From: Verrucomicrobiota bacterium
Lineage (GTDB): Bacteria; Verrucomicrobiota; Verrucomicrobiia; Chthoniobacterales; UBA10450
Direction: 5' to 3'
Assembly (NCBI GenBank): GCA_003221295.1
Contig: QHRA01000185.1
Location: 1 to 34,351 of the forward strand
Length of the DNA stretch: 34,351 bases
The notes under the pieces are model-generated. The model did no database searches and was not told the DNA's origin. It was given only the letters and a program-made list of their open reading frames with translations. Made by a program: the position numbers and the translations under genes. Below are positions 2,621 through 31,699 of this stretch, piece by piece (within the stretch, counting starts at the first letter, position 1; each line of letters starts with the position of its first letter).

Positions 2621-3109
2621 TTATTGCGCCTTAACGTTAATTAAAGTTTTCGCCAGCTCCGTTAGTTTCTTGTCGGTGGCACCTTCTTCATCCAGCGTCT
2701 GTTGCAAAAGTTTCGCGCCTTCGCTGTCACCAAGTAATTCGGCATAAGTGCGGGCGCAGCCGTAGCCGGCTATCTCGTAATGCTCGACTCGCTGCGCCGC
2801 AGCGATAAGTCCGGCATCCCGCACTTCGTCTTCCGCGTCCTGTTCGATCATTTCCGAACCTTCCTCGATCAGGCCTTCCATGCCTTTGCACTTCGGGCCA
2901 CGAGTGCTCTGGTCGTGAGTCTCCAGGATTTTTTCGAGTCGATTAACGTGTTCTTCTGTCTGGTCGAGATGCAATCTAAATCCATCGGCAAGGCGTTCAT
3001 TGGTGGCAGCCTTCGCCATTTTCGGCAGGGCCTTGGTCAGTTGCTTCTCGGCGCTGTGAAGGTCTTTCAGTTCGTGAATGTAGAGATCTTTCAGTGTTTC
3101 TAGTTGCAT
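2621..3109 (-). CDS. YciE/YciF ferritin-like (DUF892) protein
   Basis: At 162 residues this matches the YciF/YciE family in length and sequence. It opens with ETLKDLYIHELKDLHSAEKQLTKALPKMAKAA, and its second helical half contains AQRVEHYEIAGYGCARTYAELLGD. The Glu and His residues in these helices (for example YIHEL, DLHSAE, RVEHYEI) are those that bind a di-iron centre in ferritin-like four-helix bundles. Members are stress-associated cytoplasmic proteins in many soil bacteria; the reaction is not firmly known. It lies between the PHP gene and the pyrophosphatase gene on the same strand, with gaps of about 76-94 bases, so it may have its own promoter. Confidence 0.9.
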   Translation of the reverse strand: MQLETLKDLYIHELKDLHSAEKQLTKALPKMAKAATNERLADGFRLHLDQTEEHVNRLEKILETHDQSTRGPKCKGMEGLIEEGSEMIEQDAEDEVRDAGLIAAAQRVEHYEIAGYGCARTYAELLGDSEGAKLLQQTLDEEGATDKKLTELAKTLINVKAQ

Positions 3110-3185
3110 AACGTGGGGATTTCGAATTTCAGCGACGATCTGGATTTGTTCTTTGTCAAAACAAGTCGGGAATCGTCCTTTGACT

Positions 3186-3722
3186 TTATTTGCGACGTTT
3201 GATTCGGCGTTTTTGTTTTCTCACTAACTGCGCTGCCCGTTTCGGACCGTGCCGCGCAATTGGTCGGAATTTCTTTCCGCGTTCCTGGTTATAGGAGATG
3301 AAAAAGTGTTCGATCTCCTTTAACAGTGCTGGGCTCACATCGGAGAGGGTTTTAACTTCGGCATGGGTTTGTGATTTCGCTGCCACCGCGATTAACCGAT
3401 CGTTGCGCTCCTTCTTACCATCCTCACTTTGTTCGGCTTCGATCACGCCGACGAGGCGCGATTCGATGAGACAACCACAGAAAGCGGGTTCATCCATTAA
3501 GACGAGCGCGTCGACCGGGTCGCCATCGTCGGCCGCGGTCCCGGGAATTGAGCCGAAATCGAACGGGAAAACCGTGCCATGCGGAAGGACGCTCTTGAGA
3601 ACGTAGGCTTTGCGCTTCATGTCGAAGGCAAACTTACTTCGGCATCCTTTCGGTGTGTCGATGACAACGTTCAAATTGCCCGATTTCGGATCAAACGGCG
3701 GCAATCTTCTGAGCAAATTCAT
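3186..3722 (-). CDS. ppa: Inorganic pyrophosphatase, family I
   Basis: The protein contains the family I pyrophosphatase signature DGDPVDAL, whose aspartates bind the catalytic metal ions, along with the preceding FPFDFGSIPGT region, which corresponds to the FPYNYGFIP segment of standard enzymes. It hydrolyses pyrophosphate to phosphate in the cytoplasm and so pulls biosynthetic reactions forward. The ORF track starts at a GTG (3782), but homology begins at the MNLLRRLPPFDP segment, so I place the start at the ATG at 3722 (178 residues). Neither start has a strong ribosome site. The C-terminus is very basic (RKQKRRIKRRK). This is a short, divergent subgroup often found beside stress genes; the YciF gene lies next to it. 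Confidence 0.85.
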   Translation of the reverse strand: MNLLRRLPPFDPKSGNLNVVIDTPKGCRSKFAFDMKRKAYVLKSVLPHGTVFPFDFGSIPGTAADDGDPVDALVLMDEPAFCGCLIESRLVGVIEAEQSEDGKKERNDRLIAVAAKSQTHAEVKTLSDVSPALLKEIEHFFISYNQERGKKFRPIARHGPKRAAQLVRKQKRRIKRRK

Positions 3723-3824
3723 TTGTGTCGTACGAATTCGCTGTTCCCGGTAAAATTGCGCGGCACATTTGCAACCTTTCACTAGCTATCAGTTCTGATG
3801 GTCCAGTGCGTTGCTGCACCGCCG

Positions 3825-4442
3825 CTAAGATCGTCTTCCAAAAGTAATGCGGCGGGAAAGGCGGGTATCGGCTTTCAGATAGCGTTTCATCAACTGCAAA
3901 GCCTCTTTGTTCTCCTTTGCGGTATTCGAAATAACGCAGTCGGAGGGGACCGCCAGTTCGTAATCGCGTATGTAGGCGTCGTTCGCGGTAAAGAGGACGC
4001 AAAAATTTCCAGCAATGCCGGTAATGATAAGGCGCCGCACGCCAAGGTATCGCAATAACGTTTCCAACGTGCTGGAGAAAAATCCGGAGTGCTTTGGCTT
4101 CAGGACAAAATAATCGTCCTGCTTCGGATAAAGCTTTTCGATGAGCGAGCGGGCTTTTCCCTCGCGGCAATGCTCGATCAAAGCACGAAAATCGGAGCGC
4201 CAGCGCCCGAAATTGTCATTCACATAGATCACCGGAACTCTTGCCGCTTTGGCTCGCCTTTTCAGTCGCGCAATTTTGTCAGCCAGATCCGGGATAAAAC
4301 GGGCCAATTGTTTGGCCTCGGGGAAATCGAGATCGTTAATTACGTCCACAATGATCAGGGCGACCTCCGATTTGTCGGGTGCGCTGCCATGCAGATCAGC
4401 GTTCCTATGGCGCTGAGACTTTCGTGGAGTTGTATGAGACAT
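3825..4442 (-). CDS. Isochorismatase-like cysteine hydrolase
   Basis: The 205-residue product has the catalytic triad arrangement of the isochorismatase superfamily: Asp33 in LIIVDVIND, Lys115 in FVLKPKHSGF and Cys148 in GIAGNFCVLFTA. The family includes nicotinamidases, N-carbamoyl amide hydrolases and isochorismatases, all cytoplasmic, using the cysteine as nucleophile. The substrate cannot be read from sequence. The first 25 residues are polar and probably disordered. The gene stands alone on the minus strand, about 100 bases upstream of the pyrophosphatase start. Confidence 0.87.
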   Translation of the reverse strand: MSHTTPRKSQRHRNADLHGSAPDKSEVALIIVDVINDLDFPEAKQLARFIPDLADKIARLKRRAKAARVPVIYVNDNFGRWRSDFRALIEHCREGKARSLIEKLYPKQDDYFVLKPKHSGFFSSTLETLLRYLGVRRLIITGIAGNFCVLFTANDAYIRDYELAVPSDCVISNTAKENKEALQLMKRYLKADTRLSRRITFGRRS

Positions 4443-8044: not shown

Positions 8045-8144
8045 CGGAGCGGCCAAAGATTTTCCGGAGAGTTGATTGTTGATCTCTCCTTTATCGACAA
8101 ATCTTTGCGCCGGGCTTGCGTTTGAAAAAGGGAGGATGGCGGAC

Positions 8145-8954
8145 ATGAACGCGACCAAAAAGATCGTGCTTTTTGCCGCGACAATCCTTTGGTGCCTATC
8201 TGCGCTGGGCGTTGAGGTCACTGAGTTCCAAGGAGGCGCCCACGGGTTTCCAGCACTATTGAGTGCTGATGGAAAAAAACTCGCGGATGGAGATTTCTCG
8301 CAGTGGATTGAAGATGAGCGGCTGCACATCCGGATTATTTACAGATTCAAATCCGGCCAGCGCATTGAGGAGAACGCTGTATTCCGGCAGAAGCCCGAAT
8401 TGATCCAGGAACAATGGTCCTGGCGCGAAATCAAAGACGGACAACTGCAACGTGAGTTCAGCATCGATTTTAAATCGCAGATGGCGACCGCCGTAAAGCG
8501 CGACAAGGACGAAATGAAAAATTTGTCCGACAAAATCGACATACAGCCAGGTCGGACATTTGCCGGATTCGGTTTCACTTTAACGCTGCAAAATCTGCGG
8601 AAACGTCTCATCGACGGGGAACGAATCGAACTGCGAGCCGTTGGTTTTAATCCGAAGCCGAAAGCAGTCGCGGTCGAGCTGTCACACGGCGGAATTGACG
8701 AGATGAAAATGTCCAATCGGTTACTGGAAGGCGATCGCTTTGTCATTCATCCAAAAATTCCGGCCGTCGCCAAAGTATTTGTCAACGTGCCTGACACTCA
8801 GATCTGGTTAACGAAGCCGCCCGCCGGTTTCCTGCGCTGGGAAGGTCCGGTCGCTGAGCCTAACGACCCAATTATCAGAGTTGACCTCGTGCCCGGCGAC
8901 GAGAGCGGTCCGGCAAAGCCCGTCGAAAGAACTGGAGGTGAGCGTTCGCAATGA
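8145..8954 (+). CDS. Secreted hypothetical protein
   Basis: I choose the ATG at 8145 because GGAGG (8131-8135) is nine bases upstream; the earlier starts in the track are less likely. The 269-residue product has a signal-like N-terminus ([20 protein letters not shown]) and then a soluble, mostly beta-type sequence with regular alternation of charged and hydrophobic residues and no cysteines in the mature part. I do not recognise the family. It overlaps the next gene by four bases (ATGA), so it is translationally coupled to the SDR, suggesting a role in the same pathway. Confidence 0.72.
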
Positions 8955-27924: not shown

Positions 27925-28302
27925 ATGGTAGCGAACGTTCACGGCCCGCAGTTTTCCGGCGGCGCCAACATCGCGATCAAATGCCCGGCCCACACGTACG
28001 AACAGACGGTTGCCTTTTATCGCGACACCCTGGCATTGCCTTTGATTGAAGAGGAAGCGGACGGTTGCATATTCCAGTTCGGGCCGAACCGGCTCTGGAT
28101 CGATCTGGTTCCGAACCTGAGCCAACCTGATGTCTGGCTCGAATTGGAAACGAATGACACTGAAGCGGCTGCATCATTTTTGAAAGTGAACGGCATCCCG
28201 CGCCGCGACGAAGTAGAGCAATTACGCGAGGATTTTGACGGCTTCTTCATCTCCGCGCCCAACGGCGTCATCCATCTTGTAATCGGTCACGAGGAGGCGT
28301 GA
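27925..28302 (+). CDS. VOC (glyoxalase/bleomycin-resistance) family protein
   Basis: The 125-residue protein has the paired beta-alpha-beta-beta-beta layout of the vicinal oxygen chelate fold: NIAIKCPAHTYEQTVAFYRDTLALPLIEEE at the first module and WLELETNDTEAAASFLKVNGIP then FDGFFISAPNGVIHLV in the second. Metal-binding residues are not unambiguous, and the substrate is unknown. It is followed by a palindromic repeat. Confidence 0.8.
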   Translation: MVANVHGPQFSGGANIAIKCPAHTYEQTVAFYRDTLALPLIEEEADGCIFQFGPNRLWIDLVPNLSQPDVWLELETNDTEAAASFLKVNGIPRRDEVEQLREDFDGFFISAPNGVIHLVIGHEEA

Positions 28303-28312
28303 CGGCGAGGCT

Positions 28313-28371
28313 GGAGGGACGACCGCCCTGTCGTCCCAAGAAGATTGGGACCCGACAGAGCACGTCCCTCC
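28313..28371. repeat. Palindromic intergenic repeat
   Basis: GGAGGGACGACCGCCCTGTC with GTCCCAA (28313-28339) and the facing TGGGACCCGACAGAGCACGT with CCCTCC (28346-28371) form a near-complete hairpin with a six-base loop. It lies between the convergent VOC gene and the GNAT relic, at the ends of both. Confidence 0.7.
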
Positions 28372-28372
28372 A

Positions 28373-28720
28373 TCAGATATGGCGTCCAAAGATCGTTAGG
28401 TCTCTGGGCGTTTCGTCAACGCGGGCGACGCCAGGGAGAAGGCCCCAGCGCTCAAAGCCGGCGGCGCGGAAAAGCGCGATGCTCGGCTGGTTGTGGCCAA
28501 AAATTAATCCGACAAGCGAGTGAATTCCCAGTTGCGGGCCGTGCGCGATCGCTTCCTGCAACAGTCTCTTGCCAACGCCGCGGCGCTGCCGCACGTCCGG
28601 GTGCAGCATCGATTCGCGTTTACCGAGTCTGCGCAATCGGCGATAGATCGGTTGATGGCGGTAATTCATCAGCGCTTCGGTAAGCGAAAGGCTCTCGTGA
28701 TAAAGTGCCGTAGTACTCAT
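28373..28720 (-). CDS. Chimeric acetyltransferase relic (GNAT C-half)
   Basis: The 115-residue frame joins two pieces that also occur in the neighbouring GNAT-methyltransferase fusion. Residues 1-43 (LTEALMNYRHQPIYRRL..., SMLHPDV) resemble the start of its methyltransferase domain (LMQYRQQPVHGEL..., SMLHLDV). Residues 44-115 (RQRRGVGKRLLQEAIAHGPQLGI onward, to FGRHI) match its GNAT half, including the acetyl-CoA-binding QRRGVG loop. The N-terminal GNAT substrate half is absent. It looks like the product of a deletion between two tandem fusion copies. It may be nonfunctional, or a truncated acetyltransferase. It begins 18 bases after the fusion gene stop on the same strand. Confidence 0.7.
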   Translation of the reverse strand: MSTTALYHESLSLTEALMNYRHQPIYRRLRRLGKRESMLHPDVRQRRGVGKRLLQEAIAHGPQLGIHSLVGLIFGHNQPSIALFRAAGFERWGLLPGVARVDETPRDLTIFGRHI

Positions 28721-28738
28721 TCTATGGCGCGTGCCGAT

Positions 28739-29968
28739 CTATAATTTGGTTCCGCGCCAGCGACCAATCCAGGTGCTCCAGCCATAGAACCCGAGCGGCT
28801 CCAGCAGGCCGGATGCAGCTAACGCCTCCACATCAGCGCGCGCTGCTGCAATTTTCTCACCCGGACCGTAGTAGTCATCGATGACCATCCAGCAGTCCGC
28901 CGCGAGTTTGTCGCGATAGCAGTCGATGTCGCGCCCTTTGGCCGCGTCGGCATCTAGGATGAGCAAACCAATCTCCTCGCGACCGAGCTTTTGATTCACG
29001 GCCGCGACTGTCGCCGGATCGCCCGAGCGGCCCGCAATTAGTGTAACCAGATCAGCAACGCGCGCCCTTGCGAGATTGCGCTTCAGGTCGCGCAGAATGT
29101 TGCCCGTGCCCAGATGCTCGTGTTCCAAAATCCCGCCTTGTTCGACTGTAATCAGTGTTTTCCGTTTGCCGGACTCGCGAATGCCGCGCGCGGCAGCGAT
29201 TGTCGCTCCGCCGAGACAAGCGCCAATCTCCAGAATCTGTCCCGAACATATCGTTGCGAAATGATAGATGAGGATGAGCACATCGAGATGGAGCATCGAG
29301 TATCGTTTCCGAATTTTGTCGAGCTCGCCGTGGACGGGCTGCTGTCGGTACTGCATGAGCGTGTGCATCAACTCGAAGACGTCATGTAACTGCGCATCCG
29401 GCCTCATGACTATGGCGCCAGGACGGTGCGTGTCGTGATGCCGGCCCATAATAACGAGATCGCGCTCGATGTTATCTGCGCGGGCAACACGGGGAAGAGA
29501 TCCCCAGCGGGCGAACCCCAACCGCTCGAACAATCGCACACTCGCTGCATTGTCTGCGAAGATCAGCCCCACCATTGCCCTGATGCCGAGGTGCGAGGCA
29601 TGCGTGATGGCGTGTTCAAGCAATCGTCGAGCGACACCGCGCCGTTGAAAGTTTTCATCAACGTACACGCTCAGCTCGACCGTGGCACGATAAGCGCAAC
29701 GCGGCAGAAATGGTTTGCAACTGAGCCAACCAGCCACGTGCCCCTCGATTTCCGCGACCCAAAGCGGAAAACCACTGCGTAACCAGGCGCCGCAATGATC
29801 GATTGTGACGAGTTCGAGTTGCGCGGTCGCGTTTCGCCTCGCGATCGCCGCATTGTAAATCTGGGTAATTGCGGCAAGATCAACGTCTCCTGCGTCGCGC
29901 ACGCGAATGTCGGAAGCGACGGTTTCGGAAACCCCATCCCAAATTCGGCAACATCGCTCCTCAAGCAT
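28739..29968 (-). CDS. GNAT acetyltransferase fused to a class I methyltransferase
   Basis: I choose the ATG at 29968 (AAGGTGAT upstream), eight bases inside the previous gene; the track start at 30070 would overlap it by over 100 bases. The 409-residue product has an N-terminal GNAT domain (about 20-180) like phosphinothricin-type acetyltransferases, with IRVRDAGDVDLAAITQIYN and the acetyl-CoA loop FQRRGVARRLLEHAI. A C-terminal Rossmann methyltransferase follows (about 200-409) with ILEIGACLGGATIAAA, LITVEQGG and GLLILDADAA. Such a fusion could modify one small molecule by acetyl and methyl transfer. The methyltransferase gene upstream on the same strand supports a small modification operon; substrates are unknown. 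Confidence 0.8.
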   Translation of the reverse strand: MLEERCCRIWDGVSETVASDIRVRDAGDVDLAAITQIYNAAIARRNATAQLELVTIDHCGAWLRSGFPLWVAEIEGHVAGWLSCKPFLPRCAYRATVELSVYVDENFQRRGVARRLLEHAITHASHLGIRAMVGLIFADNAASVRLFERLGFARWGSLPRVARADNIERDLVIMGRHHDTHRPGAIVMRPDAQLHDVFELMHTLMQYRQQPVHGELDKIRKRYSMLHLDVLILIYHFATICSGQILEIGACLGGATIAAARGIRESGKRKTLITVEQGGILEHEHLGTGNILRDLKRNLARARVADLVTLIAGRSGDPATVAAVNQKLGREEIGLLILDADAAKGRDIDCYRDKLAADCWMVIDDYYGPGEKIAAARADVEALAASGLLEPLGFYGWSTWIGRWRGTKL

Positions 29969-30689
29969 TCGCGGGATCACCTTTTTTGATCGTAAAGCCG
30001 ATGTACCCCCAGCGGCCCCATTCTTCATGCTCACTGCGCGATCGATCCAAGAGACCGGTTTTTTTGTCATGGGCGTATCTCTCGGTCACGAACTTTGCAA
30101 ACGCAGCGTTCATGTGCACGTCGTGCGAAACGAGTAGCCCGCCGTTGCTGAGCCGGCGCCAGAATTCACGAAATTCCCACCGCATGTGCCAATAGGTGTG
30201 CCCGCTGTCGTGCAGGAACATGTCGATTTTGGCCGGTAATTTTTCGGTGCGCACAATGTCTTCTACTCTTCCACGCAGCGGCACTAGCGAGTGACGCAGG
30301 TCATCAGGGACCAGGGCCCAGTGTTCGCAATTTTCGTCTGATTCGATGCTGTAAAGCCTGGCGTTGACCATGTTTGCATCTGCGAGCGCTTTCAGAATGA
30401 ATGTCGCCGATAAACCGACGAAGCCACCCGTTTCCACAATCACGCTCGGTCGATGCCAGCGGGTTAGCGCGTAGAGTGTGGCGCAATCGAGCGCTGCCAT
30501 CAGTCCGTGGCTGCCGTGCGCCGTGCGTCTGCGCATCACTTCAGCCATGAAATCGCTGGTCCGCATTTCGGCCGCGAAGCTGGCCACGTCATCCCAAACA
30601 TCATATAACGGCAGTGGCCACGACTCGAGCGGCGGCGTTCCTTTGCCGCGAGGGGACCAGATACGTGAAAGCAAATGTCTTTGGCTCAC
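29961..30689 (-). CDS. Class I SAM methyltransferase (Methyltransf_24-like)
   Basis: The 242-residue protein has SAM-binding VIVETGGFVGLSATFI, the acidic LYSIESDENCEHW, then KIDMFLHDSGHTYWHMRWEF and GGLLVSHDVHMNAAF, the DSGH/HD pattern of the Methyltransf_24 group found in sugar and polysaccharide modification loci. It is cytoplasmic, without signal or membrane segments. The next gene's start lies within its last codons, so the two are coupled. The acceptor is unknown. Confidence 0.78.
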   Translation of the reverse strand: MSQRHLLSRIWSPRGKGTPPLESWPLPLYDVWDDVASFAAEMRTSDFMAEVMRRRTAHGSHGLMAALDCATLYALTRWHRPSVIVETGGFVGLSATFILKALADANMVNARLYSIESDENCEHWALVPDDLRHSLVPLRGRVEDIVRTEKLPAKIDMFLHDSGHTYWHMRWEFREFWRRLSNGGLLVSHDVHMNAAFAKFVTERYAHDKKTGLLDRSRSEHEEWGRWGYIGFTIKKGDPANA

Positions 30690-30841
30690 GGGAATTGCGA
30701 CCTGAACGTTCGCTGCCGCTTTCGTGGAAGCGAATCTTTTATTTGGCGCGCGCAGTATAGGCCTGCAGTTTGTGCGCCCGGCTTTTTAACCCGCTTTCAG
30801 CACCCTGGTAGTTTCAGCGTCGGCTTCGAGTTCGAATTTGC

Positions 30842-31699
30842 TCACTGCAGGCTTCGACCACCGCTACAGAAGAGCACGTCCTCGAAGCTAGGCTGGAAAT
30901 CATCGCGCGATGTTTCGCCGATGTGAAACCGTGGACTGATGGCGTTTTGCAGAGCGCAAAATATTTCCAGATCGGCGCGACTATTGTGCTGCAGTTGGGT
31001 ACGAACCACCCCAGCAGCGAGCTCGGGCGTATTGCAGTCGCGCGAAAGATGGCCGAGAACGACGCGCTCAATTTTTCCCGGCAACAATTGTTCGATTACG
31101 CTAGCCGCCGCCGGATTGGAAAGATGACCGTGGCGCGACATGATCCGTTGCTTCACCGGCCAGGGCCGATGCGGATCGCTCTGCAAAAGCTTTTCGTCGT
31201 GGTTGGTTTCGATGACCAGGGTGTGTACTTGGCGCAGCCGTTCGATTAACATTTTGGTGGGATAGCCGAGATCGGTGATGAAACCGAGCCCGCGATTGCC
31301 GGCGTGGAAAGCATAGCCGACCGGCTCGACGGCATCGTGTGGGACGGGAAAACTTTGGACCAAAATATCGCAGATAGTGAATTCGGTACCGGTGCGAAAA
31401 ATTCGCCAGTTTTTGTGCTCGCCCAGCCCGAAGCAACGAATGGCCTCGGCCGTTTGCGCGTTGCAATAAATCGGAAAGGCAAATTTCCGGCAAAGCACCT
31501 CCAACCCGCAAACGTGATCGCCATGCTCATGAGTGAGAAGCAATCCATCGAGTTGTTCGGGGGCGACGCCGCATTGCTCAAGCCGGACGACGATCTGGCG
31601 CGCGCTCAGTCCGCCATCGATCAAAATCCGGCAGTGATCGGTGGAAACGAGAGCGCTATTCCCGGCGCTGCCGCTGCCGAGCATGGTCAAGCTGAACAC
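30842..31699 (-). CDS. WalJ/YycJ-like MBL-fold metallo-hydrolase
   Basis: The 285-residue protein has the metallo-beta-lactamase metal motif LLLTHEHGDHVCGL, an N-terminal MLGSGSAGNSALV strand-loop and downstream metal-site segments FITDLGYP, VIETNHDEKLL and VVLGHLSRDCNTPE, in the order of YycJ/WalJ proteins. These are cytoplasmic Zn/Mn-dependent phosphodiesterases, with proposed 5'-3' exonuclease or DNA-repair roles. There is no close partner gene. It is followed by about 150 bases before the next minus-strand gene start. Confidence 0.88.
   Translation of the reverse strand: MFSLTMLGSGSAGNSALVSTDHCRILIDGGLSARQIVVRLEQCGVAPEQLDGLLLTHEHGDHVCGLEVLCRKFAFPIYCNAQTAEAIRCFGLGEHKNWRIFRTGTEFTICDILVQSFPVPHDAVEPVGYAFHAGNRGLGFITDLGYPTKMLIERLRQVHTLVIETNHDEKLLQSDPHRPWPVKQRIMSRHGHLSNPAAASVIEQLLPGKIERVVLGHLSRDCNTPELAAGVVRTQLQHNSRADLEIFCALQNAISPRFHIGETSRDDFQPSFEDVLFCSGGRSLQ

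What the first reader, a model, noticed from the sequence alone, without database searches (positions are those of the whole stretch)
28373..29968. GNAT-methyltransferase fusion and a deletion-born chimera beside it
The short downstream gene has the fusion protein's methyltransferase start followed by its GNAT second half, an order that only arises if two fusion units stood in tandem and the middle was deleted. This is a visible record of gene-array contraction creating a new small open frame that still has an acetyl-CoA loop.
Basis: partly seen in the sequence, partly recalled or inferred. Interest (0 to 1): 0.6.

Follow-up and report, generated by a model that had tools for sequence, protein, structure and literature searches.

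The report
Chimeric gene scrap beside acetyltransferase-methyltransferase fusion
In a soil verrucomicrobial genome, a short gene joins the start of a methyltransferase to the second half of an acetyltransferase; it is a rare, probably decaying by-product of gene shuffling whose halves come from the genus's own separate genes and not from the fused gene beside it, so it is an ordinary if neatly documented event.

Summary
ORF 28373-28720(-) is the first 43 residues of a methyltransferase (MT) joined in frame to the second half of a GNAT acetyltransferase, next to a genuine GNAT-MT fusion gene (28739-29968). The sister genome AV101 has the same junction, so it is not an assembly error. No other genome among 213 of the order has it. 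In AV101 the frame is broken by a 1-bp insertion.

The interpretation needs correcting. Neither half comes from the neighbouring fusion. The GNAT half is 76-88% identical to the separate GNAT gene that genus-mates keep at this locus, against 59% for the fusion. The MT half is nearest a genus-mate's MT (68% against 46%). Trees reject sisterhood with the fusion (AU p 0.03 and 0.04). The order "downstream gene's start, upstream gene's end" does not require tandem units and a deletion. It is the new joint made by one short-junction tandem duplication of an ordinary GNAT-then-MT pair, as shown experimentally for nusG'-'sigH in Staphylococcus aureus. The product lacks GNAT strands 1-4 and the whole SAM site. 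I call it a decaying rearrangement scrap in a gene-turnover hotspot: a real event of a known kind.

The parts
28373..28720 (-). chimeric ORF, MT 5' part joined to GNAT 3' half (115 aa)
28592..28720 (-). MT-derived part (residues 1-43), nearest to the MT of genus-mate G005
28589..28591 (-). junction region; AV101 reads GACGTTCTGCAG|CGCCGCGGC, at most a few bp of shared sequence with the presumed parents
28376..28588 (-). GNAT-derived part (residues 45-115), 76-88% identical to genus-mates' GNAT (G007, G008, G004, G003, G010)
28739..29968 (-). GNAT-methyltransferase fusion gene (409 aa; GNAT about residues 20-178, MT about 196-405)
29961..30689 (-). second Methyltransf_24 gene (242 aa), overlaps the fusion start by 8 bp; absent from the other nine genus-mates searched
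28303..28372 (.). palindromic intergenic repeat between the chimera and the convergent gene; similar stretches elsewhere in the genome
30842..31699 (-). conserved left flank: MBL-fold hydrolase
27925..28302 (+). conserved right flank: glyoxalase-like gene (weak Pfam match)

Best explanation
The short ORF is a non-functional or decaying rearrangement product of the genus's resident GNAT gene and MT gene, which in genus-mates stand separately in the order GNAT then MT between the same two flanking genes. The likeliest single step is a short-junction tandem duplication running from GNAT codon ~108 to MT codon 43. Its new joint is exactly MT-start/GNAT-end, in frame and with little or no shared sequence at the joint. 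Full-length resident copies were then lost, most likely when a foreign-looking cassette (242-aa methyltransferase plus GNAT-MT fusion) replaced them. Shown: parentage of the halves (GNAT half strongly, MT half moderately), conserved synteny, shared junction, frameshift in one copy. Inferred: the duplication step, the order of events, acquisition of the cassette, lack of function.
For: GNAT half 76-88% identical to genus-mates' GNAT against 59% to the neighbour; MT half 68% to G005 against 46% to the neighbour, which ranks 20th. Both halves fall in the genus clades (GNAT 99/95, MT 99/99) and sisterhood with the fusion is rejected (AU p 0.0285 and 0.0443). The resident GNAT-then-MT pair lies between MBL and glyoxalase in genus-mates. 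A separate 110-bp duplicate of the MBL 3' end between GNAT and MT in G008 shows that duplications happen at this spot. Mechanistic precedent: short-junction tandem duplication gives downstream'-'upstream chimeras (nusG'-'sigH; PMC3486894). AV101 copy frameshifted. GNAT beta 1-4 and all MT motifs missing.
Against: No genome with the intermediate GNAT-[MT'-'GNAT]-MT was found. The MT half is only 43 aa, and its being outside the resident clade is not excluded (AU p 0.053). Over the whole chimera the window/AV101 comparison has somewhat fewer nonsynonymous changes than neutral (dN/dS 0.25 from 19 differences), so weak or past constraint is not excluded. In-genus ancestry of the fusion is not rejected either (AU p 0.09-0.26).
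Confidence: 0.6

Rival explanations
1. Array contraction, but of resident genes: GNAT-MT-GNAT-MT in tandem, deleted from inside MT1 to inside GNAT2.
For: Gives the same junction. G008's MBL 3' duplicate is what a duplicated MBL-GNAT(-MT) block would leave behind.
Against: Needs two events where one suffices. No tandem GNAT-MT arrays in the family. Resident GNAT 5' half and MT 3' part are gone from the locus.
Confidence: 0.15
2. Cassette-edge junction: the acquired block (242-aa MT, fusion, start of a further MT) was joined illegitimately into the resident GNAT gene, replacing its first half.
For: The low-divergence block shared by window and AV101 (1.7% against 9% outside) runs 28610-30734, and its low edge (28545-28635 within 2 lnL units) includes the MT/GNAT joint. 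MTs of this family do stand in tandem elsewhere (G102), and the 242-aa MT sits on the other side of the fusion in G081.
Against: The MT half groups with genus MTs, not foreign ones. Mosaic low-divergence blocks occur elsewhere between the two genomes (p167, 2.2%), so the coincidence may be chance.
Confidence: 0.2
3. Direct contraction of two GNAT-MT fusion genes.
For: The fusion is adjacent and the architecture fits.
Against: Identity and trees; no tandem fusion seen.
Confidence: 0.03
4. A new functional small protein under selection.
For: In-frame joint; window copy intact; dN/dS 0.25 over the whole ORF.
Against: Frameshift in AV101; half a GNAT fold; no SAM site; MT half 3 of 4 changes nonsynonymous.
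Confidence: 0.05

Closest known systems
Short-junction tandem duplication chimeras (S. aureus nusG'-'sigH and rplK'-'sigH, PMC3486894)
   Same: Start of the downstream gene fused in frame to the end of the upstream gene.
   Different: There the event was caught in the laboratory with an 8-bp repeat at one joint, intact flanking copies and an active product; here flanking copies are lost and no function is indicated.
Phosphinothricin N-acetyltransferase-like GNATs (PDB 1vhs, 3dr6/3dr8 YncA, ArsN1 models)
   Same: The fusion's GNAT domain matches across its length (1vhs E 2.5e-31; YncA rank 1 in the fold search).
   Different: Scores are well below the NCBIfam equivalog cut-offs (ArsN1a 97.8 against 170), so the substrate is unassigned; the chimera keeps only the second half.
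Methyltransf_24 (PF13578) class I methyltransferases
   Same: The fusion's C-terminal domain and the 242-aa gene pass the cut-off.
   Different: The chimera carries only the 43 residues that precede the SAM-binding region.

Membership tests
GNAT acetyltransferase (PF00583), chimera | complete domain with strands 1-4 plus the acetyl-CoA loop | tested here: not met
   Only profile positions 68-116 of 116 matched; beta 1-4 (residues 22-103 of the fusion model) absent.
GNAT acetyltransferase (PF00583), fusion | domain above the gathering score | tested here: met
   66.3 bits against 20.7; PDB matches.
Methyltransf_24 (PF13578), fusion | domain above the gathering score | tested here: met
   33.8 bits against 26.3; conserved EIGA..GG motif.
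Methyltransf_24 (PF13578), chimera | SAM-binding region | tested here: not met
   No Methyltransf_24 match in the chimera; it stops before the EIGA motif.
ArsN1 / phosphinothricin acetyltransferase equivalogs | NCBIfam equivalog cut-off | tested here: not met
   97.8 against 170 and 61.1 against 300 bits.
Chimera born by short-junction tandem duplication | downstream'-'upstream order of neighbouring genes | tested here: met
   Resident order is GNAT then MT; chimera is MT'-'GNAT.
Chimera born by short-junction tandem duplication | intact copies of both parents flank the joint | tested here: not met
   Neither full-length resident parent remains at the locus; the claim is therefore 'arose like one', not a proven member.
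Contraction of tandem fusion genes | halves closest to the fusion gene | tested here: not met

The most novel reading that the evidence does not exclude
The in-frame chimera of the window lineage is expressed as a newborn small protein (for example a CoA-binding or partner-binding fragment) with a selected role, lost again in AV101.
Probability: 0.05. Interest if true: 0.45.

Novelty: new member of a known kind. Interest (0 to 1): 0.25.

Why it matters
It gives a wild, comparative example of a chimeric reading frame made from two neighbouring genes, caught in one clade with one copy still open and the sister copy already broken. It also shows that adjacency to a look-alike fusion gene is misleading about parentage, and that 'reversed order' chimeras need only one duplication.

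Tried and rejected
Assembly artefact: rejected, the junction is in a second genome with 6% divergence across the chimera. Normal conserved family: rejected, 2 of 213 order genomes. Derivation from the adjacent fusion: rejected. Proof that the fusion entered by horizontal transfer: not reached, AU p 0.09-0.26, and base composition is flat across the region. Remnants of the missing halves of the resident GNAT and MT: none found beyond the matches to the fusion itself. Paper search for a Verrucomicrobia GNAT-methyltransferase fusion: one paper, not opened, not obviously relevant. My first split of the fusion's dN/dS by domain was out of frame for both parts and is not used.

Full report
What is there. 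The 115-aa ORF 28373-28720(-) matches the neighbouring fusion protein in inverted order: residues 1-43 to its MT start (44%), residues 45-114 to its GNAT second half (59%). The fusion (28739-29968, 409 aa) passes Pfam cut-offs for GNAT and Methyltransf_24. A model of it (mean pLDDT 77.5) shows a GNAT fold, a low-confidence linker at 180-195 and a methyltransferase-like domain; the GNAT part matches YncA/phosphinothricin acetyltransferase structures. A 242-aa methyltransferase gene precedes it and overlaps its start by 8 bp.

Where it lies. The window is contig C137 of a 2.98-Mb, 87%-complete draft genome; its closest named relative is a soil Verrucomicrobia MAG, AV101. In relatives throughout the family the interval between the MBL-fold gene and the convergent glyoxalase-like gene holds a GNAT gene, with or without an MT gene after it, or a GNAT-MT fusion. 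It is a turnover hotspot: GNAT alone (G004, G006, G020, G022, G029), GNAT then MT (G003, G008, G014, G071), fusion (many genomes of genus g4, and G017), fusion then the 242-type MT (G081), and 242-type MT, fusion, chimera (window, AV101).

Rarity. Searching the chimera through 213 genomes of the order finds matches to the GNAT half or the MT half in 66, but the joined architecture only in the window genome and G009/AV101.

Parentage. The GNAT half is 76-88% identical to the GNAT of genus-mates G007, G008, G004, G003 and G010 and 59% to the adjacent fusion. The MT half is 68% identical to the MT of G005 and 55-58% to those of G007 and G008; the adjacent fusion's MT (46%) ranks twentieth. Trees put both halves among genus genes (GNAT 99/95, MT 99/99) and the fusion with other genera. 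Holding chimera and fusion together is rejected for GNAT (p 0.0285) and MT (p 0.0443). The MT half is short, and placing it just outside the genus clade is only borderline (p 0.0527). At the joint AV101 reads GACGTTCTGCAG then CGCCGCGGC; GACGTTCTG matches genus MTs and CTGCAG matches G005, while the GNAT side is nearly identical to G008.

How the order arises. In genus-mates GNAT precedes MT. A single tandem duplication with one end inside GNAT and the other inside MT creates the joint MT'-'GNAT. This was shown in Staphylococcus aureus, where duplications produced nusG'-'sigH and rplK'-'sigH from the order sigH, then nusG/rplK (PMC3486894). So 'only two tandem units and a deletion' is too strong. 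Contraction of a resident array stays possible: G008 carries a 110-bp, 74%-identical copy of the MBL 3' end between its GNAT and MT, evidence that duplications occur here. A third possibility is that the joint is the edge of an imported cassette: the window/AV101 low-divergence block (1.7% against 9%) runs 28610-30734, with the low edge between 28545 and 28635 and the high edge between 30664 and 30894, so the joint at about 28590 lies within the uncertainty of the edge.

The fusion as newcomer. The fusion and the 242-aa MT are in two of eleven genus genomes, and relatives of both are common in genus g4. This suggests import, but tests that force the fusion into the genus clade do not reject it (p 0.26, 0.09, 0.17). 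I leave acquisition as likely, not shown.

Fate. In AV101 a 1-bp insertion shifts the frame in the GNAT half. Of four window/AV101 differences in the MT half three change the amino acid, by reading codons in the alignment; over the whole chimera dN/dS is 0.25 on 19 differences, too few to decide. The product would lack GNAT beta 1-4 and everything from the SAM motif on. I judge it a decaying scrap.

Verdict. It is a known kind of event, well documented here by comparison.

Noticed in passing
window 27925-31699 and syntenic loci (L034-L057, L115-L154): The interval between the MBL-fold gene and the glyoxalase-like gene is a gene-turnover hotspot across the family, with GNAT, GNAT+MT, fused and rearranged versions.
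   Followed up: partly
L118 (G081) 647-2523: The relative of the 242-aa methyltransferase sits downstream of the fusion here, whereas in the window it sits upstream: the same genes at the same locus in permuted order.
   Followed up: no
L040 (G008), about 4244-4350 on the minus strand: 110-bp duplicate of the 3' end of the MBL gene (74% identical) lies between the separate GNAT and MT genes.
   Followed up: partly
window 28610-30734 versus L034: Block of low divergence (1.7% against 9% outside) covering the 242-aa MT, the fusion and the MT part of the chimera; suggests recombination between strains.
   Followed up: partly
L045 (G005) 8073-8392: The resident GNAT gene of this genus-mate is broken by inserted sequence while its MT gene is intact.
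   Followed up: no
L143 (G102:C130) 2938-4306: Two Methyltransf_24-type genes in direct tandem at another locus.
   Followed up: no
L049 (G014), L136 (G071): GNAT and MT as separate genes whose matched stretches overlap by about 7 bp, a likely precursor state of the fused gene.
   Followed up: no
L040 (G008) 1250-2540: Fumarase homologue appears to lack about 33 residues in the middle and to change frame; may be an assembly fault.
   Followed up: no
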